26,868 nucleotides of DNA from a virus, in the IMG/VR virus record IMGVR_UViG_3300050821_003628, positions 1 through 26,868 of that record; one strand, written 5' to 3'. Below the pieces are notes generated by a model. That model searched no databases. It was not told where the DNA came from and worked only from the letters and a program-made list of their open reading frames with translations. The translations under genes and the position numbers were made by a program. Below, piece by piece: positions 3,453-20,306 of the stretch. Within the stretch, counting starts at the first letter, position 1; each line of letters starts with the position of its first letter.

Positions 3453-3666
3453 GGCTGGACTGGGCGAGGAGGAGATGATTGTGAATAGGCTGGTCCAAGC
3501 CATAGAGGTTGGTGTAGTCCAAGATGGCGTATTCTATCCGTTTTTTGAGCTTCTTCGCGGGGAGTACATTCGGTTTAAGGTGTATGCCGATATTGACTCA
3601 GTTGAGGTAAGAGGAACCATGACAGGGGATCTAGGAAGCGAAAGAGGTGATGGTAAGCCGAACTAG
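3415..3666 (+). CDS. Small hypothetical protein before portal
   Basis: 83 residues. The ATG at 3415 is chosen over a TTG at 3409 because AAGGAG lies 8 bases before it. The N terminus MAKSPFRKAIRIKAG is basic; the centre (VVQDGVFYPFFELLRGEYIRFKVY) is hydrophobic and beta-like but not a convincing membrane segment. It overlaps both neighbours (38 bases with the previous gene, about 20 with the portal gene), a packing typical of phage head operons. Function unknown. Confidence 0.62.
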   Translation: MAKSPFRKAIRIKAGLGEEEMIVNRLVQAIEVGVVQDGVFYPFFELLRGEYIRFKVYADIDSVEVRGTMTGDLGSERGDGKPN

Positions 3667-5716
3667 ACTATCCACCAATGGCCACAACGGACGCGGCCTC
3701 TACGCGGGTCTCATGGACCCGCTCACGGCCAACATCGTCGCCAACCAATCCGAGCAAATCACGCTCCTGAACCGGGAAGTGTTCCGCCGCTTCTTTGATC
3801 CGCGCCGGAACATAGACGACGAGTGCGGCTACCCCGACATGGAGACGGGGATAGGCACGACGCTTATCGACCCGGACTACTACCGCCGGCTTTACGACCG
3901 CGAGCCGATCGCCTGCCGCGTGGTGCAATGCCTACCGAAGGAGAGTTGGCAGGTCACGCCGCTGGTGTACGAGGATGAGGACCCCGACAAGATAACACCT
4001 TTCGAGGAGGGATGGGATGGACTCAGCAAGACCCTGCGAGGAGCCCAGTCGTGGTATCAGGATGAAGAGGGCAGTCCAGTATGGGAGCATTTACGAAGAG
4101 CGGACATACTCAGTGGTCTTGGCCACTACGGTGTACTACTCATCGGGATTGACGATGGTCTGGCCTTCGATCAGCCTGCCGAGGGAGTTTCGGCCCTGCG
4201 ACCGACCGGAAACGCCATAGTGGATAAGCTCCGCGCCTCCAAGCCAGGCCCCGAGATAACCACCAACCGCAAGGGCGAGCCGTTCGTTGACATGAACCCC
4301 GACGAGGCGTGGCTGGCCGTGAACGGGATCACCAATCCGAATCGGCCAAGACGCAAGAGACGAAAAGAGGAAGACGACCAGGGCACGTCGGTTGCCGACG
4401 TGGAGGAGCCGACGCTAAACACGTTCAGCAGGTCGACGAACTATCCTGCGTCGGTATCCGACTCGTCGCCTACTGACAACCTCTTCAAGACCTCCGCCGC
4501 CGACTTGGGCAGCGACTTCTCCGACCAGCTAGGCATGCAAGGGACTGATGCCCAGTACACCGGCGTCCAGTTCGGCCCGAGCGAGTACCCGTCTGAGAAA
4601 CCAGCCGGCCAAGAGCGTAAGCTGATCTACCTCCGCGCGTTCGATGAATCACTAGTGCAGGTGGTGCAGTATGAGGCTAATGCACGCAATCCCCGCTTCG
4701 GCATGCCCGTCATATACAGAATTACTCTCAATGATCCTCGTGAGCAGCACAGTGGCATCGGACTGCCTCTGGCTACAGTTCGCGTACATTGGTCAAGAGT
4801 CATTCACTTGGCGGACAATCTTGGTTCCTCTGAAATATTCGGTGTTCCAAGAATGCGGCCAGTGCTTAACCCCCTTCTGGATATTCGTAAAGTACGGGGA
4901 GGAGCTGCTGAGGGATATTGGAAGGCTTGCATCACCGGCATAAGCCTGGAGACTCATCCCGAGCTTGGGGGCGACGTCAATATCCCCAAGCAGAACCTCC
5001 AAGACATGATCGAGAACTACCAGAACGGCCTGCAACGGTTCCTGGTGCTCTCGGGTATGTCGGCCAAGACGATGGCCCCTACCGTCGTTGATCCAACACC
5101 GCATATCAACATCCAGATCGAGGCCATTTGCATTCAGCTTGGCATTCCTGTCCGGGTATTCAAGGGGAGCGAGCGCGGGGAGCTGGCATCCAGCCAAGAC
5201 GACAGTAGTTGGAACGATCGCCTGCGCGAGCGCCAGCGCGGGTACATTACGCCGCGCATCATCGTCCCGTTCGTGGACCGGCTCATCAGCATGGGCGTGC
5301 TGCCGGAGCCGGAAGGGTACTCAGTCGAGTGGCCGGATCTCGATAGCTTGAGCGACAAGGACCGCGCGGGGATCTTCCTCCAGAGGCAGCAGGCGTTCGC
5401 GGCCTATGTCAGTGGGAACGTGGAGACAGTATTGCCCGTCAAGGATATGCTGACACGCGAGGCCGGCTTTGACGAGGAAGAGGCGGATGCCATTACCGAC
5501 GCGGCCAAGGACGCTGAAGACACAATGACCATGCCGCCACCTGGCGAGCTAGGGCACCCGGCCACGCCTAAGCCTCCACCGGCGCCACCGATCATAGCGC
5601 CTGGTGGAATGCCGAAGCCCGGTCAGCCGGCACAGAAGCCTGGAGCGCCACCTCCCGGCGGAGCGAAGGCACCTCCGCCAGCGCCGAAGCCGGGAGCGAA
5701 ACCTAAACTGGAGTAG
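3647..5716 (+). CDS. Portal protein (DUF1073-like)
   Basis: 689 residues. The portal is the dodecameric ring at the capsid vertex through which DNA enters and leaves and on which TerL docks. The sequence fits the DUF1073 portal family: an N-terminal part with LIDPDYYRRLYDREPIACRV, a clip/stem region with WSRVIHLADNL and FGVPRMRPVLNPLLDI, and the marker FKGSERGELASSQDDSSWND followed by RQRGYITPRIIVPFVDRL. Residues ~240-320 form a low-complexity charged insertion. The C terminus (about residues 625-689) is a Pro/Ala/Gly-rich tail, longer than usual. Start is GTG 3647 or the adjoining ATG 3650; spacing to GGAAG favours GTG. Confidence 0.9.
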   Translation: MMVSRTRLSTNGHNGRGLYAGLMDPLTANIVANQSEQITLLNREVFRRFFDPRRNIDDECGYPDMETGIGTTLIDPDYYRRLYDREPIACRVVQCLPKESWQVTPLVYEDEDPDKITPFEEGWDGLSKTLRGAQSWYQDEEGSPVWEHLRRADILSGLGHYGVLLIGIDDGLAFDQPAEGVSALRPTGNAIVDKLRASKPGPEITTNRKGEPFVDMNPDEAWLAVNGITNPNRPRRKRRKEEDDQGTSVADVEEPTLNTFSRSTNYPASVSDSSPTDNLFKTSAADLGSDFSDQLGMQGTDAQYTGVQFGPSEYPSEKPAGQERKLIYLRAFDESLVQVVQYEANARNPRFGMPVIYRITLNDPREQHSGIGLPLATVRVHWSRVIHLADNLGSSEIFGVPRMRPVLNPLLDIRKVRGGAAEGYWKACITGISLETHPELGGDVNIPKQNLQDMIENYQNGLQRFLVLSGMSAKTMAPTVVDPTPHINIQIEAICIQLGIPVRVFKGSERGELASSQDDSSWNDRLRERQRGYITPRIIVPFVDRLISMGVLPEPEGYSVEWPDLDSLSDKDRAGIFLQRQQAFAAYVSGNVETVLPVKDMLTREAGFDEEEADAITDAAKDAEDTMTMPPPGELGHPATPKPPPAPPIIAPGGMPKPGQPAQKPGAPPPGGAKAPPPAPKPGAKPKLE

Positions 5717-5718
5717 CT

Positions 5719-5931
5719 ATGGACTCTGAGACACTAGCGAAAGAACTGCACGGAGCTTACTGCTATGCGTACGAGGGGCCTTGCCGCCAGTGGGACAAAC
5801 TCACGGAGACTGAAAGAGACGTAAGGCGAACGCAGGCGGTATACTTGCTGGGCAGGTTGAATATCTCTCTTCACGACAATCTCTTGCCGAGAGAGACCGT
5901 GGCTGAGGCGGCCAAGAGAGGATTCAGGTGA
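5719..5931 (+). CDS. Small hypothetical protein
   Basis: 70 residues, not recognised. The start lies two bases after the portal stop and uses GGAG from the end of the portal gene. The sequence is helical and charged (MDSETLAKELHGAYCYAY, ETERDVRRTQAVYLLGRL) with two cysteines. No membrane segment. Its stop TGA overlaps the GTG of the next gene (GTGA). Confidence 0.65.
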   Translation: MDSETLAKELHGAYCYAYEGPCRQWDKLTETERDVRRTQAVYLLGRLNISLHDNLLPRETVAEAAKRGFR

Positions 5932-6179
5932 CCATGAATCATGGAGTGAAGAGATGCCTCCAATGTAACGGGGAAGGCTTGGTTAACGACTGGGACGTAC
6001 CGCCTGAGTCCGGTCCTGTGAAAGTTACATGCCCCAGATGCCACGGATACCGAGAGGAGCCTACTGATGCCCAAGTGCAAGATGTGCCCCAAGCCCGGCG
6101 AGTACCACGTCCAGCTACGGGTCTACCACGCGCATCTGCTGGACCCGAACAAAGAACGGCCGGTCTACCTGATGCTTGA
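5928..6179 (+). CDS. Small zinc-ribbon-like protein with out-of-frame tail
   Basis: 83 residues from GTG 5928 (81 from ATG 5934). Two knuckles, CLQCNGEG and CPRCHGY, resemble half of the DnaJ CxxCxGxG zinc module, so one zinc ion is likely bound. After residue ~46 the protein continues for 113 bases inside the next gene in a different frame, and this tail (RVPRPATGLPRASAG) reads like a shadow frame. A TGA overlapping the next ATG (TGATG at 6065) would end the gene neatly if one base were gained or lost nearby. So the true C terminus may be at about 6066. Confidence 0.55.
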   Translation: MTMNHGVKRCLQCNGEGLVNDWDVPPESGPVKVTCPRCHGYREEPTDAQVQDVPQARRVPRPATGLPRASAGPEQRTAGLPDA

Positions 6180-6420
6180 AGCGGTCTGCGCCGACCACCA
6201 GAAAGAGATCAAGCTGGAGTACATCCTGGACAGCATTGACCTACGGAAGCGGATCGAGGCCCAGTTCTTTCTTGGAAAGCCGAAGCCTGATTGGAGGCGG
6301 TCGGAACTGCGGTGGGTGGCGGTCAACAGCGAGGAGGCGCTGGCGGCATTTAGGGGGATCAATCAGAGGCTGAGAGACAATCTTGGCGATATCGAGGAGT
6401 TGCTGAGGAGCAGAATGTGA
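6067..6420 (+). CDS. Hypothetical protein with N-terminal CxxC
   Basis: 117 residues. The N terminus MPKCKMCPKPGEYHVQL and a later C..H pair (AVCADHQKE) could together form one zinc site. The rest is charged and helical (EYILDSIDLRKRIEAQF, ALAAFRGINQRLRDNLGDIEELL). No named family. The start sits in a TGATG context after the zinc-ribbon gene, and its TGA overlaps the GTG of the next gene, so it is coupled to the MuF-region genes. Confidence 0.65.
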   Translation: MPKCKMCPKPGEYHVQLRVYHAHLLDPNKERPVYLMLEAVCADHQKEIKLEYILDSIDLRKRIEAQFFLGKPKPDWRRSELRWVAVNSEEALAAFRGINQRLRDNLGDIEELLRSRM

Positions 6421-7880
6421 AGATCCGACCCAAGAAGCGCCGGCCGACCGCCAACGCCTTCTGTCCTACAGGGCCGGGTGGTGGCGTCGATCCTAGCTGC
6501 TCACCAACCCACGGCGTGAGCCTGCCGGTCAAGAAAGGCAAGATTAACATCGGGCACGCCAAGCAAGCCCTAGAGGAAATGGGATTCAAGCTCGGTTCCG
6601 CAAAGACTACTTTACACGAGGGTCAGTGGACAACCGCGTATGAGATTACCAGGCCAGACGGGTCCACGTTCTCTTCCTCTGCAAAGGCACTAACTGATTT
6701 CGTCTACAAGACCGCCAGGAACCTACGGCCGACCAGAAACCAGTTGACTGTCAATCCGTTTGTTTCAGAAGCGCAAAGAAGAGCATGCTACGCGAAGGGA
6801 GACGATAATTGGGACTGCCACGAATGGAGCGAGAAGACCAAAGGCAAACTCCCCAAGCGCAAGCCGAACCGCATCGCCACGAACAAGCTGAAACTCCGCG
6901 CCAACCGCAAGGGCAAGAAGAAGCCGAGCGTTAAAGCATCACGTCTTGATCCGACCCGCACTGTCACTATGCGCCGGGCGTTCTGCGCCAAGATCAAGAG
7001 GCAGTTCGCACTCCTCAAGGGTCGGATCGTCAAGCTGGTGGTTGACGAGGACGCCTTCGGGCTGAAGGAGCGCGAGCCGTTCTCTCTGAACTACAGCGAG
7101 GACCAGGCCCGCGACGAAAGGGGCAGGTTTGGTGAAGGCGCCGCAACCATCGAGGGCGGCGGCAAGGTATCGTTCTCCTCCGTGCTGACCGGCCTGAAGG
7201 CAGTAGGTGCCTCAGCCTCTCATATCGAGCACCTGGCCAAGTCCTACGCTGCGGATGGCATAGGTAAGGCGGTATCCGCTCTCCCCGATCATCTGCCCCA
7301 AGCGGTGAATGCTACCTACGGCCCGCTGGCCTACGCCGGCAAGATGGGACTATCGGCTGCCTTCGCGGTCTTCACGTCCACGCAGGCGCTAGCTGAGAGG
7401 ACGGCGCGGGAGCGAGGCCATACTCCCGAGCAAGCCAAGCAGCTCCGTGGGGTGCTGTCCAAAATCGACTTGGGCACATTCGAGGCGTTCAAGTTCAGCG
7501 CCATAGCTGGAGTCCACGCGGCCCATCTGCCGGCGCTCGTGACGGGGACGCTGCCCGTGGCCTCGGTGGGCTACTTGGCCTACTCGACGGCCCGCGATCC
7601 ACTGGCCACTATCCGCGCCGCTACAGGGCTCGTCAAAGAGGCTGCCGGCAAGGTCGGCGCCAGCGTCAAGCGATACCTCATCCACAATTCGGAGCAAGAG
7701 AACGCCGCGACCGTGGCCATGGCGCTCGAGGCGCACGGATTTAACGACTGGTACTACGCTCTGCTGTCGGCTGCTCTGGATGAAGTGGGCGGGGTGATGC
7801 AGGCTATCGACTTGGCGCACGAGTTGTATGAGAAGCATCCGACGGCGAAGCTAGTTCTAGAGGAGCCTAAACGTGACTGA
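6417..7880 (+). CDS. MuF-type head protein, N-terminal half, with foreign C-terminal domain
   Basis: 487 residues from GTG. Layout seen: basic start and linker NAFCPTGPGGGVDPSCSP (13-30); a small alpha/beta domain (about 34-105, with YEITRPDGSTF); SEAQRRACYAKG and a lysine-rich stretch (117-172); then RRAFCAKIKRQFALLKG and VVDEDAFGL (186-215), which I recognise as the N-terminal part of MuF/SPP1 gp7-like head morphogenesis proteins; a second linker EDQARDERGRFGEG (228-241); and a C-terminal Ala/Gly-rich helical domain with hydrophobic stretches (about 250-480). The rest of the MuF protein is in the gene at 8156-10120, so this looks like the front of a split gene. MuF proteins are minor head proteins at the portal, ejected or used in assembly. 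Confidence 0.7.
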   Translation: MKIRPKKRRPTANAFCPTGPGGGVDPSCSPTHGVSLPVKKGKINIGHAKQALEEMGFKLGSAKTTLHEGQWTTAYEITRPDGSTFSSSAKALTDFVYKTARNLRPTRNQLTVNPFVSEAQRRACYAKGDDNWDCHEWSEKTKGKLPKRKPNRIATNKLKLRANRKGKKKPSVKASRLDPTRTVTMRRAFCAKIKRQFALLKGRIVKLVVDEDAFGLKEREPFSLNYSEDQARDERGRFGEGAATIEGGGKVSFSSVLTGLKAVGASASHIEHLAKSYAADGIGKAVSALPDHLPQAVNATYGPLAYAGKMGLSAAFAVFTSTQALAERTARERGHTPEQAKQLRGVLSKIDLGTFEAFKFSAIAGVHAAHLPALVTGTLPVASVGYLAYSTARDPLATIRAATGLVKEAAGKVGASVKRYLIHNSEQENAATVAMALEAHGFNDWYYALLSAALDEVGGVMQAIDLAHELYEKHPTAKLVLEEPKRD

Positions 7881-8151
7881 ATACTCAGTCCTTGTGAAGC
7901 ATTCCGGATTCGTTGATCGATTCCTTAAGTCTGACACTCCGCCAGAAAACATCGGAATGAGCATTTGGTGGGCAATCGAAGATAGCGAGATCATTCGGTT
8001 CAGGCGGCGAGAATCAGCGGACAATTGCAAGCGGCGATACGAGCTGCACTTCGCCGCTAAGGGCGAAAAGATATATTCGTTCGTCGTAGTGAAAGTCGTC
8101 ATGCAGCCTAAGTGGATTCAAGTTGATGAGTATGAGCGTATAGAAGGATAG
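7873..8151 (+). CDS. Small hypothetical protein between the two MuF parts
   Basis: 92 residues from GTG, overlapping the previous stop by 8 bases. The protein is beta-rich and basic (DSEIIRFRRRESADNCKRRY, YSFVVVKVVMQPKWIQVDEY). It is more AT-rich in codon choice than its neighbours, for example ATATATTCGTTCGTCGTAGT at its C-terminal part. No family recognised. Its position between two parts of what seems to be one ancestral gene suggests it arrived with the insertion. Confidence 0.65.
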   Translation: MTEYSVLVKHSGFVDRFLKSDTPPENIGMSIWWAIEDSEIIRFRRRESADNCKRRYELHFAAKGEKIYSFVVVKVVMQPKWIQVDEYERIEG

Positions 8152-8155
8152 AACT

Positions 8156-10120
8156 ATGAAGATACGGACTAGGAAGCGGCGGCTGTTGGCCAACTCTTTC
8201 TGCCGCACGGGGGAAGGTGGCGGAGTTGATCCAACGTGTTCGCCGGGTGGAGGAGATCACGACAAGTTGTTGAATCTGTCTGGGCATGTGAGCAAAGGGC
8301 TAGAAGCGTGGGAAAGAGAAAGAGCGACCTCGGAGAATCCGTATAAGCACGTGGAATCGACCGAACTTGTCGCACGCCATGACCTATTCCTGAAGCAATT
8401 GAACATGGCAAAGAGCGATGGCCGAGACGAAGATGCGGCCAAATGGAAAGGGAAAATCGAAAACGCCAGAGAGGAGATAGACTCACGAAAAACGTATTAC
8501 TCTCTGCAACGGCAGAAAAGCGCAATCGATGAGGGGATCAAGACAGGCAAGCTAACGGTTACCGAAGGGGAGATGGCCAAGATACTGTCTTCTAAAGGTG
8601 ACGTGTACCACGACGCTGGCATAAAATCTGAAGGCGGCCGGTATCCCCACGCTCCAGAGCTATTCCGCACAAGCGACCTGTCAGGGGCAAAGATCAGGCA
8701 TTATGTAACTTTGCCGGACGGACGGATTGCCCATCCAGACGAACTTATAGAGGCAAGGCAGCGAGGCAGGCTAGGAATAATCGGCCAAGACGTTAAGTTG
8801 CCGCCACGAGATTGGACTACCAACACAGTCGCCAACACCCGCTGGATGTTCCACGACCCCACCGACAAGGTGAAGGCATTCCAGGCGTGGCTCAAGCGGC
8901 AGACGTTCTCCCTCATCAGCAACGAAACCGAAGAGGAGCGCTGGAAGCGCTACATCCAGGAAGGCTTCGCCAAAGGTGCCGGTAGAGCGTTTGACGACGT
9001 GCGGATGTCGAAGCTTGGCAAGGAGCACCCCGAGCTATTCAGCGCTGAGGCGCAGCAGTCGGTGTCGGACTTCTACCGGGGCACGCGCGAGGAGTTCCTG
9101 CGGTCGTCTTTCGCGCAGCCGGAGTCGATTGAGAAAGTGAGGCTTCTGGCGGATCGGACGTTCGATGAGCTGAAGAACGTAACGGAGGATATGAGCAACC
9201 GCATGAGTCGCAGCCTCACTGACGGGCTTGTGCAGGGGAAGCATCCGCTGGAGATCGCGAAGGACATGAATGAGGAAGTGGACCTGGGTGAGTACCGCGC
9301 GGAGACGGTGGCGCTTACGGAGCTAATCAAGGTTCATGCAGAAGCGCAATTAGATGCGTTTGAACAATTAGGAGTCGAGGAAGTCGGCGCGGCCCTGGAA
9401 TTCGCAACTGCGGATGACGATTCCGTGTGTCCTGAATGCGCTGCATTAGACGGGGTCGTACTCACCGTCGAAGAAGCGCGCGGCATAATTCCCCTGCATC
9501 CCCGAGATCGCTGCTGCTGGCTACCAGCAAACGTTGGTGAAGACGACTCCGACCAAAAGGACACAAAGGCACAAATCGACAAGGCGCTTGAAGAGTCGGG
9601 AGCCGACATTGACGTGGAGATCAGCAGCGACCGGCCAGAGAGCATTCTCAACACCGCCAACGAGCGCGGCAGCTTCTTCGCGGACTGCCCGCGAGACGAG
9701 TTAGGCCATTGTCTACCGGCCGGCGGCTCGTCAGTCGTCAAGGGCGACATCCTTCGGGCCGCTCAAGCGCAAGCGAGGGACAAGGGCAGCGCAATCGCGA
9801 AGCCATCCAAGGAGGATATCCACGCAGCCAACGAACGCATCAACAGTCTTGGAGCCGACAGGTACGAGAGCCAGATCCGTGGCAACTCGACCGACAGGGC
9901 CAACAGCCGCGACCGGCTCTTGAAGGAGTTCGGCGACGGCCACCACTGTCCCTGCATCTACTGCGGTCTGAAGCTCGGCAAGGATACCGTGACTCGGGAC
10001 AAGATAATCACCGCGCGGCAGGGAGGTCGCTATAAGAACGAGAACCTGGTCCCGGCGTGCCTCGCTTGCAATCAGGCTAGAGGCGATACCAAGTGGGAGA
10101 ACATCCGATGGCAGAAGTAA
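8156..10120 (+). CDS. MuF-type head morphogenesis protein with C-terminal HNH nuclease
   Basis: 654 residues. N terminus repeats that of the 6417 gene (MKIRxxKRR, then NSFCRTGEGGGVDPTCSP at 13-30). Residues 33-220 form a charged helical domain of unknown kind. From 227 (NTRWMFHDPTDKVKAF) the MuF protein proper resumes. The MuF domain core is at about 330-458, with VALTELIKVHAEAQLDAFEQLGV, DDDSVCPECAALDG and PLHPRDRCCW. A linker ADCPRDELGHCLPAGG (509-524) leads to an HNH nuclease at 597-645: two CxxC pairs (CPCIYC, CLACN), TRDKI in place of the usual DHI, and NLVPAC. The HNH part may act on DNA or be cargo carried in the head. Confidence 0.85.
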   Translation: MKIRTRKRRLLANSFCRTGEGGGVDPTCSPGGGDHDKLLNLSGHVSKGLEAWERERATSENPYKHVESTELVARHDLFLKQLNMAKSDGRDEDAAKWKGKIENAREEIDSRKTYYSLQRQKSAIDEGIKTGKLTVTEGEMAKILSSKGDVYHDAGIKSEGGRYPHAPELFRTSDLSGAKIRHYVTLPDGRIAHPDELIEARQRGRLGIIGQDVKLPPRDWTTNTVANTRWMFHDPTDKVKAFQAWLKRQTFSLISNETEEERWKRYIQEGFAKGAGRAFDDVRMSKLGKEHPELFSAEAQQSVSDFYRGTREEFLRSSFAQPESIEKVRLLADRTFDELKNVTEDMSNRMSRSLTDGLVQGKHPLEIAKDMNEEVDLGEYRAETVALTELIKVHAEAQLDAFEQLGVEEVGAALEFATADDDSVCPECAALDGVVLTVEEARGIIPLHPRDRCCWLPANVGEDDSDQKDTKAQIDKALEESGADIDVEISSDRPESILNTANERGSFFADCPRDELGHCLPAGGSSVVKGDILRAAQAQARDKGSAIAKPSKEDIHAANERINSLGADRYESQIRGNSTDRANSRDRLLKEFGDGHHCPCIYCGLKLGKDTVTRDKIITARQGGRYKNENLVPACLACNQARGDTKWENIRWQK

Positions 10121-10593: not shown

Positions 10594-12768
10594 ATGGAGA
10601 TCTTCTCAGTCAACCTGGCTGGCAAGGTACGGCGCGAGACTCTCAACGGTCGTAGCTTCCTCGTCGCGCCAATGTCGCTGTTGCCGTTGAATGGCGTTTT
10701 GCACGGTAGCCAGGGGCCTCTCTTCTATCCGGAGCGCGAGACCAGGAACACCTACAAAGCGTGGGATTACATGCCTCTAGTTGTGTGGCATCCCACCGAC
10801 TCTCAGGGCAGACACGTCTCCGCCCGCGACCCGGGCATCATCCAGAACTGGGGCATCGGGTTTAACCGCAAGACGCACATCAATGGGCGGATGCAGAGCG
10901 AAGGCTGGTTCGATGAGGAGAAGACCAAGCAGGTTGATAACAAGCTGGTCAAGAGAGGCATCGACCCCATTCACCATCGCTTGCTCAAGAATCTGCCCAT
11001 CGAAATCAGCACCGGACTCTTCACCGACAATGAGCCCGCGCCATCGGGCGCGACTTGGAACGGCGCGCCCTACGAGTTCATCGCTCGCCGGTACGTGCCA
11101 GACCATATCGCAGTTTTGCCGGATCAAAAGGGCGCGTGCTCGATAGCGGACGGGTGCGGGGTCATGGTGAACAGCAGCGGGAGTCGGCCGATACCCAAGA
11201 CTCTCCTTGAGCGCTTCATGGACTGGACAAGTCTTATGCTCAACGCCGGCAAGTACGGCAACCCTCAGCACGCGGAGACAGGAACTTTCATGGAACACGG
11301 GGCCGGAACTGGGAAGGGCGAAGTGCATGACGCCGCTGTGAAGGGTCGAGGCGGGTGGTACGGGGAGGAGCACCCCGAAACACCCCCATCACCAGACGAG
11401 CAGTATGTTCCCGGAAACCCCAAGCCGCCGCAACAGACCCACCACGAGACGGACCTGACGAACGACGAGTGGGACAAGATGAACGAGACCGCTCTGAAGG
11501 GAGGCCGCGCGCGGGACGCGCTAGACGACAACTACGGCGGCATGGCCAGTGAGATGAAGGGCGGCGGCGGGAGCGATATCGGGACGCTGAGTGCACACAA
11601 TCAAGCACCACAAGGAGTGCCAATGGGACCGCCTAGTCAATTCAATCCGGCCCCCTTACCACCGGCGCACGAGGCCAGCAAGCAAGCGGCTGGCGCATCG
11701 CTCATGGCCGAGCATGCCCCGGCGCGCGAGCCCGCGCTAGCAGCGGTGGACTCAAGCAAGGACGGCAACAGCAAGAAGGCCGCCAGCTTCCACACCAAGG
11801 CTGCCGAGGCGCATGAAGGCGCGGCCACGGATGCACGCAAGAATAAGGACCCCAACACGGCGGACCAACACGATAACGCGGCAGCGCTCCACCGCAAGGC
11901 GGCGAGCCTGCATCAAGCGTCGATGATCGGGAATATGAGTGGTGGCGGAGCCCCAATCGAGATCCAACGTAATCAATTCCAGGAACAGGAGACCACCATG
12001 CCTAACTTCGGAACAGTGGGATACAGCAGAGGGCAGGCGCTCCGGCTCCTGACCGCGAACTGCAAATGCGACAAAGACAAGGCCGCTTACAACTCTCTCT
12101 CCGACGACGAACTCAAGCGCCTGCTCGGGGAGATCGCCAAGGCCCCTGTGGGCAATGCGCGTAAGGGTGTAACCGAGGAAGACGACGGCGAGATTGGCCA
12201 GTCCACCGACGACGAGGGCAAGGCCCACAAAAAGATCGAGGACGAGTACGACGATCAGGGCGTGAAGATTGAGACGAAAGCGCTCAAGACGAATCGCGCC
12301 GCCGTCCTCAACAAGTGGATGAACGATCCCAACGTGCCACCGCAGGTCAAGGAAGCGGCAATCGAGAACCTGCGTCACGTCCGTGAGCAGAAGATCAAGC
12401 TCGTTACCAAGCTGATCGCAAACGTCAAGGAGCCAGAGCAACGGCAGGCTGTCGGCAACCGGCTGATGAAGAAGGAACTCTCCGAGTTGCGGGAATTGGT
12501 TAGCCTGATCCCGACCGCCAACGATGAGTACGGCGACTTTGACCGCTTCAGTGAACCAGTGGCCAACTACGGTCTGGCTGCGGGCGGCCCTGGAGTCTAC
12601 GCGCTGACCGAGAACGAGTCCGCGGACGTGCTGCCCCTGACAGCCGAACACACGGGCGGGATCTGCCGGCGGCCAGTCCGCAACAAGGGCAAGAACGAGA
12701 AGGACTCAGCAGGTCATGACGTGGGCGGCGAGGCGGACGAGGACGAGCCGGAGAAAGAGACTGCATGA
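10594..12768 (+). CDS. DUF2213-type prohead protease/scaffold-like protein
   Basis: 724 residues. The first ~190 fit DUF2213: RRETLNGRSFLVAPMSLLPLNGVL, PLVVWHPTD (HP motif, 66-67), PIEISTGLF (135-143), and the marker YVPDHIAVLPDQKGACS with DGCG. This family sits where the capsid maturation protease is encoded and is thought to have that role. Then come a linker GNPQHAETGTFMEHGAGTG (222-240), a Pro/Gly-rich spacer, an Ala/His repeat region (FHTKAAEAHEGAA, ALHRKAASLH) and an acidic helical C terminus like a scaffold. The ATG lacks a good ribosome binding site, but the family start matches. An 83-base gap precedes it. Confidence 0.78.
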   Translation: MEIFSVNLAGKVRRETLNGRSFLVAPMSLLPLNGVLHGSQGPLFYPERETRNTYKAWDYMPLVVWHPTDSQGRHVSARDPGIIQNWGIGFNRKTHINGRMQSEGWFDEEKTKQVDNKLVKRGIDPIHHRLLKNLPIEISTGLFTDNEPAPSGATWNGAPYEFIARRYVPDHIAVLPDQKGACSIADGCGVMVNSSGSRPIPKTLLERFMDWTSLMLNAGKYGNPQHAETGTFMEHGAGTGKGEVHDAAVKGRGGWYGEEHPETPPSPDEQYVPGNPKPPQQTHHETDLTNDEWDKMNETALKGGRARDALDDNYGGMASEMKGGGGSDIGTLSAHNQAPQGVPMGPPSQFNPAPLPPAHEASKQAAGASLMAEHAPAREPALAAVDSSKDGNSKKAASFHTKAAEAHEGAATDARKNKDPNTADQHDNAAALHRKAASLHQASMIGNMSGGGAPIEIQRNQFQEQETTMPNFGTVGYSRGQALRLLTANCKCDKDKAAYNSLSDDELKRLLGEIAKAPVGNARKGVTEEDDGEIGQSTDDEGKAHKKIEDEYDDQGVKIETKALKTNRAAVLNKWMNDPNVPPQVKEAAIENLRHVREQKIKLVTKLIANVKEPEQRQAVGNRLMKKELSELRELVSLIPTANDEYGDFDRFSEPVANYGLAAGGPGVYALTENESADVLPLTAEHTGGICRRPVRNKGKNEKDSAGHDVGGEADEDEPEKETA
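11612..11617 (+). promoter_or_regulatory. Internal ribosome binding site (first)
   Basis: AAGGAG five bases before an in-frame ATG at 11623 inside the DUF2213 gene. Starting there would give a 381-residue C-terminal product without the protease-like domain. Confidence 0.35.
11986..11991 (+). promoter_or_regulatory. Internal ribosome binding site (second)
   Basis: CAGGAG six bases before an in-frame ATG at 11998 inside the DUF2213 gene. It is stronger than anything before the gene's own start. Confidence 0.45.
11998..12768 (+). CDS. Possible nested scaffold product of the DUF2213 gene
   Basis: In-frame internal start giving 256 residues (MPNFGTVGYSRGQALRLL...). The ATG has a well-placed CAGGAG, and the sequence changes character exactly here, from low-complexity linker to a charged helical protein (KEAAIENLRHVREQKIKLVTKL) with an acidic end (GGEADEDEPEKETA). 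In phage lambda the scaffold Nu3 is made from an internal start within the protease gene C; this would be the same arrangement. What is seen is the start signal and domain boundary; the scaffold role is inference. Confidence 0.42.
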   Translation: MPNFGTVGYSRGQALRLLTANCKCDKDKAAYNSLSDDELKRLLGEIAKAPVGNARKGVTEEDDGEIGQSTDDEGKAHKKIEDEYDDQGVKIETKALKTNRAAVLNKWMNDPNVPPQVKEAAIENLRHVREQKIKLVTKLIANVKEPEQRQAVGNRLMKKELSELRELVSLIPTANDEYGDFDRFSEPVANYGLAAGGPGVYALTENESADVLPLTAEHTGGICRRPVRNKGKNEKDSAGHDVGGEADEDEPEKETA

Positions 12769-19321: not shown

Positions 19322-19431
19322 GCTTTTTCACCGCGCTTTTCGTTGTTGTGACGTTGTTCGCTTTGTTCGTCTCTTGGGTCGGGCTTGCTCTGTTTTTCCC
19401 GCTCCCGGTCGTGGACGAGGATGAAGAATGA
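19318..19431 (+). CDS. 37-residue single-pass membrane protein
   Basis: MSFFTALFVVVTLFALFVSW and 17 further residues, ending FPLPVVDEDEE. One membrane helix with an acidic C terminus. Both ends overlap neighbours as ATGA, coupling it to the secreted protein before and the protease after. The start codon is placed directly behind GGAG. No family known; it may assist or regulate the protease. Confidence 0.55.
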   Translation: MSFFTALFVVVTLFALFVSWVGLALFFPLPVVDEDEE

Positions 19432-20306
19432 AACGGGCAGTCGCAATCCTGATTCTCCTCTGTGGCTTTCCCGTCCAAGCCGCGCCTCAGAATGATCCTA
19501 GATGGGACGGCGCTTCTGTCCGCATTCCTTCGCACGGTGTTACGGCAACCGTCATCCACACAGAGCGCGGCCTCACTTACTTACTCGGGTGTTCGCACGC
19601 TTTTGACCCTCGGCCAGTGGAGTGGGAGCAACTCCAAAACGCCAAGGAATGGTGGTACGGCTTCCTAAATGGCGACTTGATCGCCTGCTACAACGGACGC
19701 ACGAAGCAATTTCATTGGAAAGTAGGCAAAGCCTGGACATACGCAATGCCTTTCCCCGCTGGAGGTATTGCTCCGAAGGACATGCTCAAGGAACGCATGC
19801 GCCTCGACTTGCCTACCTACGGGTGGCACGGGATCAGAGTCGGTTATGAGGCGAAGCTTCTTCATCGTGATCCGAAGCTCGACTTGGCCCTGATCCAAAT
19901 AAACGATGGCCCGGCGCCGTACGTCTGCCACGTCGCCGGCAAGAGTTACGTTCCAGGCAAGCACTTCATCTCTGTGGGCTACGACGAAATGAAGACGCCG
20001 GCCAAGCTGTGCCGGGCGACGGTGTTGGGATCGACGGCCGTTGTCAACATCGTCTACCCGCCGCCAGCCCATAGAGGGCCGGTCACCGATCTTGAAACGA
20101 CGTTCACCGTTGAACCGCCGTGGCATGGGAGATCAGGCGGGGCGTTGATCGACACCGACGCCGGTCTCCTAGTGGGAGTGTGCGGCGCTTACGACGGCGA
20201 TACCGAACACGCGAAGGCCGGAGACGCTCGGGGCGGGCCCGGGATCTACACCTCGCACCGAGCGATTCAGCGATTTCTACAGCAATGCGGCTGGCATACG
20301 AAATAA
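19428..20306 (+). CDS. Secreted trypsin-like serine protease with inserted aromatic module
   Basis: 292 residues; start coupled to the previous gene by ATGA. Signal peptide MKRAVAILILLCGFPVQA is followed by a chymotrypsin-fold protease: His57 in LGCSHAF, Asp152 in KLDLALIQI and Ser236 in WHGRSGGALI, with the strand GLLVGVCGAYDG after the serine. Substrate and target are unknown. Between His and Asp, residues ~71-111 (EWWYGFLNGDLIACY...FHWKVGKAW) resemble the aromatic module of the two preceding secreted genes, an unusual insertion in this fold. Several cysteines may form disulphides. A secreted protease is rare in a phage head region. Confidence 0.82.
   Translation: MKRAVAILILLCGFPVQAAPQNDPRWDGASVRIPSHGVTATVIHTERGLTYLLGCSHAFDPRPVEWEQLQNAKEWWYGFLNGDLIACYNGRTKQFHWKVGKAWTYAMPFPAGGIAPKDMLKERMRLDLPTYGWHGIRVGYEAKLLHRDPKLDLALIQINDGPAPYVCHVAGKSYVPGKHFISVGYDEMKTPAKLCRATVLGSTAVVNIVYPPPAHRGPVTDLETTFTVEPPWHGRSGGALIDTDAGLLVGVCGAYDGDTEHAKAGDARGGPGIYTSHRAIQRFLQQCGWHTK

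What the first reader, a model, noticed from the sequence alone, without database searches (positions are those of the whole stretch)
6417..10120. A MuF head protein split over two genes with foreign sequence in between
The 6417 gene ends its MuF-like part with RRAFCAKIKRQFALLKG and VVDEDAFGL; the 8156 gene resumes with NTRWMFHDPTDKVKAF, the next part of such proteins in the relatives I know. Between them are a helical domain, a separate gene (7873-8151) and a second domain. The two genes begin with nearly the same ~30 residues, as if the front was copied. Each junction has a short linker tag. MuF proteins in other phages carry toxins and nucleases; here the C-terminal part is an HNH nuclease. 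A split, re-duplicated carrier with two cargo domains would be new to me.
Basis: partly seen in the sequence, partly recalled or inferred. Interest (0 to 1): 0.75.

Follow-up and report, generated by a model that had tools for sequence, protein, structure and literature searches.

The report
Head protein gene split by cassette
In this uncultured phage the gene for a MuF head protein, which is one unbroken gene in all 42 relatives checked, has been cut in two at a loop where related phages insert extra cargo domains, each usually led by a short conserved protein tag.

Summary
Gene 6417-7880 carries the N-terminal helix of a MuF head protein; gene 8156-10120 carries the MuF core plus a C-terminal HNH domain. 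In Hardycor1 and 41 viral contigs checked, helix and core lie in one ORF. A minimal 312-aa relative has about 12 residues between them. In the closest relative (72-kb contig) the same helix, the same helical domain and the same core form one uninterrupted protein. Only the window is split.

The loop between helix 1 and helix 2 is a cargo-insertion hotspot (276-1040 aa in the window's clade: pyrophosphatase, C39-like peptidase, helical domain). Cargo is usually preceded by short tags, chiefly FCxTGxGGGxDxxC. This tag is widespread in IMG/VR (at least 120 stretches), but I found it in no GTDB genome, no close match among 50,697 named phages, and not in the paper library.

The split comes from a ~970-bp block of atypical composition (about 7849-8821) that supplies a stop, a 92-aa gene and a new MuF-type start with its own tag and domain. 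The "copied front" is not a recent in-place copy. Most likely both halves still function and load two cargo sets. That, and any processing role for the tags, is inferred.

The parts
6417..6458 (+). P0001 res 1-14, basic MuF-type start (VKIRPKKRRPTANA)
   Evidence: 12/14 identical to the start of the undivided MuF of L004 (MKVRPKKRRPTANA)
6459..6500 (+). FCPTGPGGGVDPSC tag, first copy (P0001 res 15-28)
   Evidence: Tag search: 197 tags in 120 IMG/VR stretches; absent from this place in L004
6507..6731 (+). Small cargo domain of P0001 (about res 31-105)
   Evidence: phmmer E 1e-7 to 1e-6 to domains in other loci fetched with the FC tag, L017, L029, L116, L120, L125
6741..6932 (+). NPFVSEAQRR module and basic stretch (P0001 res 109-172)
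   Evidence: Also at the MuF N-terminus in L129, L131, L013, L024 and in the protease gene of L127
6933..7076 (+). MuF N-terminal helix (P0001 res 173-220, DPTRTVTMRRAFCAKIKRQFALLKGRIVKLVVDEDAFGL)
   Evidence: Same ORF as the core in all relatives; 96% to L004, dN/dS 0.058; profile match
7101..7133 (+). DQARDERGRFG tag before the helical cargo
   Evidence: DQPRDEHGRWG at the same place in L004, DQPRDAHGRFG in L161
7134..7838 (+). Helical cargo domain (P0001 res 240-474)
   Evidence: Cargo at the same MuF hotspot in L129, L130, L133, L136, L161; portal C-terminal cargo in L162
7849..8821 (.). Inserted block of atypical composition that breaks the gene (replaces about 80 bp of the undivided form)
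   Evidence: blastn homology to L004 stops at 7848 and resumes at 8833; GC3 0.55 against 0.70-0.82 in most neighbouring segments
7873..8151 (+). 92-aa gene P0003, unknown
   Evidence: ORF with SD (GAGGAG) and 8-base overlap with the end of P0001; no relatives found
8156..8239 (+). P0002 res 1-28, second MuF-type start plus FCRTGEGGGVDPTC tag
   Evidence: 22/35 identical to the P0001 start; MKIRTRKR shared with the L161 MuF start
8246..8821 (+). Unknown domain of P0002 (res 31-222)
   Evidence: No Pfam match and no viral relative
8822..9547 (+). MuF core (P0002 res 223-464)
   Evidence: Pfam PF04233, TIGR01641, PHROG 758/115; 31 relatives
9683..9727 (+). DCPRDELGHCLPAGG tag before the HNH domain
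   Evidence: Same tag (DCPRDDHGHCLPSG) before the HNH domain in L134
9953..10087 (+). HNH nuclease cargo at the C-terminus of P0002
   Evidence: PF01844, PF14279; 51% to the C-terminus of the undivided L134 MuF

Best explanation
This is one MuF portal-associated head protein that acts as a cargo carrier and has been divided into two genes. In the ancestor a flexible loop between helix 1 and helix 2 held inserted cargo. In the window lineage a block, probably from a related phage (a small gene plus the 5' part of another MuF gene with tag and domain), recombined into that loop. It ended the first protein with a stop and restarted the second with its own Shine-Dalgarno sequence, start, tag and cargo, in frame with the MuF core. 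SHOWN: homology to one undivided protein, position of the break, atypical composition of the block, intact translation signals, and strong conservation of the helix and of the first half of the core. INFERRED: both proteins are made; the helix in P0001 docks on the core in P0002 (or binds the portal itself), so both enter the head and two cargo sets (tagged small domain and helical domain; unknown domain and HNH nuclease) are delivered with the DNA.
For: Helix and core in one ORF in Hardycor1 and 41 viral contigs; undivided L004 protein with the same cargo; minimal 312-aa L128 MuF with a ~12-aa linker; AF2 model of L128 (pLDDT 79, pTM 0.76) with helix 17-44 at high confidence, disordered loop 55-64, helix 68-85, matching viral minor capsid/head proteins by fold. 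Hotspot cargo of 276-1040 aa in seven relatives. Break at 7848/8833, GC3 0.55 in the block, dN/dS 0.058 for the helix. Start signals. MuF proteins bind the portal at 1-2 copies per capsid in SPP1 (PMC5576092).
Against: Only one split instance is known, from an uncultured contig, so an assembly join or a dying gene is not fully excluded. The invariant Cys of the HPNCRC motif is changed here (HPRDRCC). dN/dS is pairwise and cannot date selection to after the split. P0003 and the P0002 N-domain have no relatives, so the donor is not identified. Packaging was not tested.
Confidence: 0.72

Rival explanations
1. The split is a recent recombination accident: only P0002 (the core) still works as MuF, and P0001 is a leftover or free-standing effector protein whose MuF helix no longer matters.
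For: Single instance; the inserted block has no relatives; the core has an odd HPRDRCC motif.
Against: The P0001 helix is 96% identical to L004 with 14.5 synonymous and 3.5 nonsynonymous changes, and the whole gene is open with start signals. P0001 also kept and gained cargo modules.
Confidence: 0.25
2. The halves are rejoined: a split intein, an intron or a frameshift makes one full protein.
For: MuF cores of relatives often carry inteins, so trans-splicing had to be considered.
Against: No Hint/intein match in P0001 or P0002 at E<=1. P0001 is homologous to the undivided protein until about 13 residues before its end, leaving no room for an N-intein. No Rfam intron match. The three ORFs are in three different frames with their own starts.
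Confidence: 0.03
3. Assembly chimera: two MuF genes of different phages were joined by the assembler.
For: Composition changes at the block; the source is metagenomic; a second stretch (P0002 res 351-498) also looks imported.
Against: Both flanks match the same relative in order over the whole region; translational signals and an 8-base gene overlap sit at the joints; the core continues in frame.
Confidence: 0.06

Closest known systems
MuF superfamily head proteins (PF04233; SPP1 gp7, Mu gpF) and MuF polymorphic toxins (PMC5576092)
   Same: MuF core, in the head gene cluster downstream of the portal gene; extra effector-like domains
   Different: Here and in the window's clade cargo sits inside MuF, between helix 1 and the core, as well as C-terminal; and the protein is split over two genes
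Polyvalent proteins (Iyer et al. 2017, PMC5512222)
   Same: Virion-linked multidomain proteins including MuF and portal fusions; shared domains such as InPase (L129) and ART-PolyVal (L109)
   Different: The passages consulted describe no conserved Cys-Gly tag between modules; there the expected separation is by built-in peptidases
Fractured genes with split inteins (Dassa et al. 2009, from memory)
   Same: A gene broken in two with another gene between
   Different: No intein halves in the window; the break is not spliced
Halorubrum phage Hardycor1 MuF (MT152698)
   Same: Named phage with both parts in one 656-aa protein
   Different: Short linker of about 28 residues, no tag, no split

Membership tests
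MuF superfamily (PF04233/TIGR01641) | Profile match above curated cut-off | tested here: met
   P0002: 41.4 bits against 29.6; 53.5 against 39.65
MuF superfamily (PF04233/TIGR01641) | Gene near portal in the head cluster | tested here: met
   Portal 3647-5716 upstream, protease/scaffold-like gene 10594 and DUF6260-type capsid gene 13380 downstream
MuF superfamily (PF04233/TIGR01641) | Helix 1 and core in one polypeptide | tested here: not met
   Split in the window, single ORF in all relatives. The claim made is therefore 'split MuF carrier'
MuF superfamily (PF04233/TIGR01641) | Conserved CxxC...HPxCRC motif | tested here: inconclusive
   CPEC kept; HPNCRC reads HPRDRCC
Polyvalent proteins | Two or more effector-type domains fused in a virion protein | tested here: met
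   P0002 has MuF + unknown domain + HNH; P0001 has small domain + MuF helix + helical domain
Polyvalent proteins | Packaged in the head and injected | not testable with these tools
   Needs virion proteomics
Split-intein fractured genes | Intein halves at the break | tested here: not met
   No Hint/intein match in P0001 or P0002

The most novel reading that the evidence does not exclude
The FCxTGxGGGxDxxC tag (with the DQPRDxxGRF, DCPRDxxGHCLPxG and GGPGSGxPGPCP types) is a general module mark for virion-carried cargo, recognised by the phage's own head machinery, most likely as a processing site. MuF carriers would then be cut at the loop anyway, and the window's two genes are a pre-cut version of the mature carrier.
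Probability: 0.2. Interest if true: 0.82.

Novelty: new variant of a known kind. Interest (0 to 1): 0.6.

Why it matters
MuF proteins are known as carriers of C-terminal toxins. Here a whole clade uses an internal loop of MuF as a loading dock, filled with modules marked by short conserved tags not found in the sequence collections of named phages and cellular genomes, or in the papers searched. The split shows the loop tolerates even a complete break, which makes the dock directly testable. If the tags prove to be a loading or processing code, they give a simple sequence handle for finding virion-injected effectors in uncultured phages.

Tried and rejected
Split intein, intron and frameshift rejoining. 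Recent in-place copy of the front (rejected: dS 1.9 over 30 codons). DNA-level function of the tag, such as a recombination site (151 distinct DNA versions with free third positions). A relative or donor for P0003 and for P0002 res 31-222 (none). PDB sequence and fold searches gave no MuF structure. First AF2 run with 14 sequences was poor (pLDDT 54); 29 sequences gave pLDDT 79. The genome-contig search with the core found no relative and with the tag found no match, so the host is unknown. L144 has its core broken at another place (inside the core, likely sequence error or intein remnant) and is not a split of this kind.

Full report
OBSERVATION. The window is an IMG/VR virus record. Gene 6417-7880 (P0001, 487 aa), gene 7873-8151 (P0003, 92 aa) and gene 8156-10120 (P0002, 654 aa) are intact, overlap or abut, and each has a Shine-Dalgarno-like sequence (GAGGAG, GAGGAG, GAAGG) at the usual distance. 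P0002 is a MuF protein with an HNH domain at its end. P0001 has no Pfam match, but PHROG 758, a head morphogenesis family, fits P0001 res 164-226 on profile positions 13-78 (weak, E=0.022) and P0002 res 223-465 on positions 67-297.

ONE PROTEIN IN RELATIVES. In named phages the best hit is the 656-aa MuF of Halorubrum phage Hardycor1. It matches the P0001 helix at 5541-5666 and the P0002 core at 5775-6506 of the same gene. In the closest viral contig (3300031753_000004, locus L004) one ORF holds, in order, the MuF start MKVRPKKRRPTANA, the basic stretch, the helix, an InPase domain, the DQPRDEHGRWG tag, the same helical domain at 86-88%, and the MuF core. A minimal relative (L128) is a 312-aa protein with only about 12 residues between EDxFGL and the WRF helix. 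A search with the core alone found 31 contigs; in all of them the helix lies in the same ORF. L161 and nine further contigs fetched by the tag (L013, L015, L020, L024, L034 and its duplicates, L050, L067, L074, L075) also have both in one ORF. L068 and L081 are the L134 and L131 contigs again. The window is the only split case. Because the search used the core and not the helix, this count is not biased towards undivided forms.

THE HOTSPOT. Between helix and core the distant relatives have 1-28 residues. The window's own clade has 446 (L129), 276 (L130), 495 (L131), 1040 (L132), 873 (L133), 690 (L134) and 277 (L136) residues. Inserted there are an InPase domain (PF18823), a C39-like peptidase (PF13529, several contigs), a stretch that reads by eye like a NUDIX domain in L013, and the same helical domain as in P0001 in five relatives. 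The AF2 model of the minimal MuF (29 sequences, mean pLDDT 79, pTM 0.76) shows helix 17-44, an unstructured loop with residues 55-64 below pLDDT 50, and helix 68-85. Fold search finds viral minor capsid and head morphogenesis proteins; the first, A0A7T0LYF4, is 656 aa long like the Hardycor1 MuF. The hotspot is therefore a flexible loop after a well-placed helix.

THE SPLIT. DNA homology to L004 ends at 7848 and resumes at 8833; about 80 bp in L004 correspond to about 985 bp here. The new stretch has GC3 of 0.55 (P0003 0.554; P0002 res 31-222 0.552) against 0.68-0.82 in most flanking segments. It supplies the stop of P0001, the 92-aa gene, and a new start with tag and domain. The new start resembles MuF starts: MKIRTRKRR here, MKIRTRKRKK in the undivided L161 MuF. 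It shares 22 of 35 residues with the start of P0001 but is saturated at synonymous sites (dS 1.9, against about 0.7 between the window and L004), so it is not a recent in-place copy. The simplest account is recombination at the hotspot with the upstream gene and the 5' part of a related phage's MuF gene. The donor was not found. The P0001 helix (dN/dS 0.058), the helical domain (0.076) and the first half of the core (0.108) are strongly conserved; this is a pairwise figure and cannot date selection to after the split.

THE TAGS. I found no exact match in 84,980 bacterial and archaeal genomes, no close match in 50,697 named phages and no mention in the papers searched. DNA versions vary freely at third positions (151 distinct sequences), so the motif is kept at protein level. 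In MuF proteins it lies in the hotspot or after the core, never inside the helix or core. It also follows the portal domain (L012), the S78 prohead protease domain (L010) and the DUF2213-like protease domain (L043), and precedes ART-PolyVal (L109). Other tags play the same part: DQPRDxxGRF, DCPRDxxGHCLPxG, GGPGSGxPGPCP. Most tag-bearing proteins (136 of 151 ORFs) were not assigned to a family by the local profiles, so 'mark of cargo on inner head proteins' is a generalisation from the assigned ones. A processing or loading role is inference.

MECHANISM. [quoted passage not shown] The best account is a two-piece carrier: P0001 brings the anchoring helix with its cargo, P0002 the core with its cargo, assembling in trans. 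Shown: common origin, place of break, imported block, intact signals. Inferred: production, assembly, packaging, delivery.

VERDICT. A confirmed, unusual variant of a known family. The split itself is a single case. The internal cargo dock and its tags are recurrent and more interesting than the split.

Noticed in passing
L129:8838-9848 (-), L131:8652-9422 (-), L075:6178-6918 (-), L150:6308-7117 (-): Inteins in the MuF core of relatives contain a long ORF on the opposite strand that looks like a homing endonuclease (zinc-ribbon + DUF559/MTES_1575 in L129, E 1e-10; HTH plus a weakly matched REase-like part in the other three), while the sense frame stays open as the intein. Two different insertion sites are used. 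A short literature search found no report of antisense endonucleases inside inteins. This may be more novel than the finding itself.
   Followed up: partly
window 9206-9650 (P0002 res 351-498): This stretch is synonymous-saturated against L004, with low GC3 (0.53) over its central part, so it seems separately imported. It covers both intein sites seen in relatives; the second reads HPRDRCC instead of HPNCRC, which removes the Cys next to the intein site and could make the gene intein-proof.
   Followed up: partly
L166:1-9186 (+): MuF-core polyvalent protein of at least 3061 aa (open at the contig end) with three FC tags and the helical domain.
   Followed up: no
window 10594-12768: Protease/scaffold-like gene (PHROG 760 part at res 3-199, similar to L043's protease domain that is followed by an FC tag) has a tag-like NPQHAETGTFMEHGAG after that domain and Ala/His-rich repeats.
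   Followed up: no
window 19428-20306: Trypsin-like peptidase (PF13365, E 2e-9) with what looks like a signal peptide, in a phage late region.
   Followed up: no
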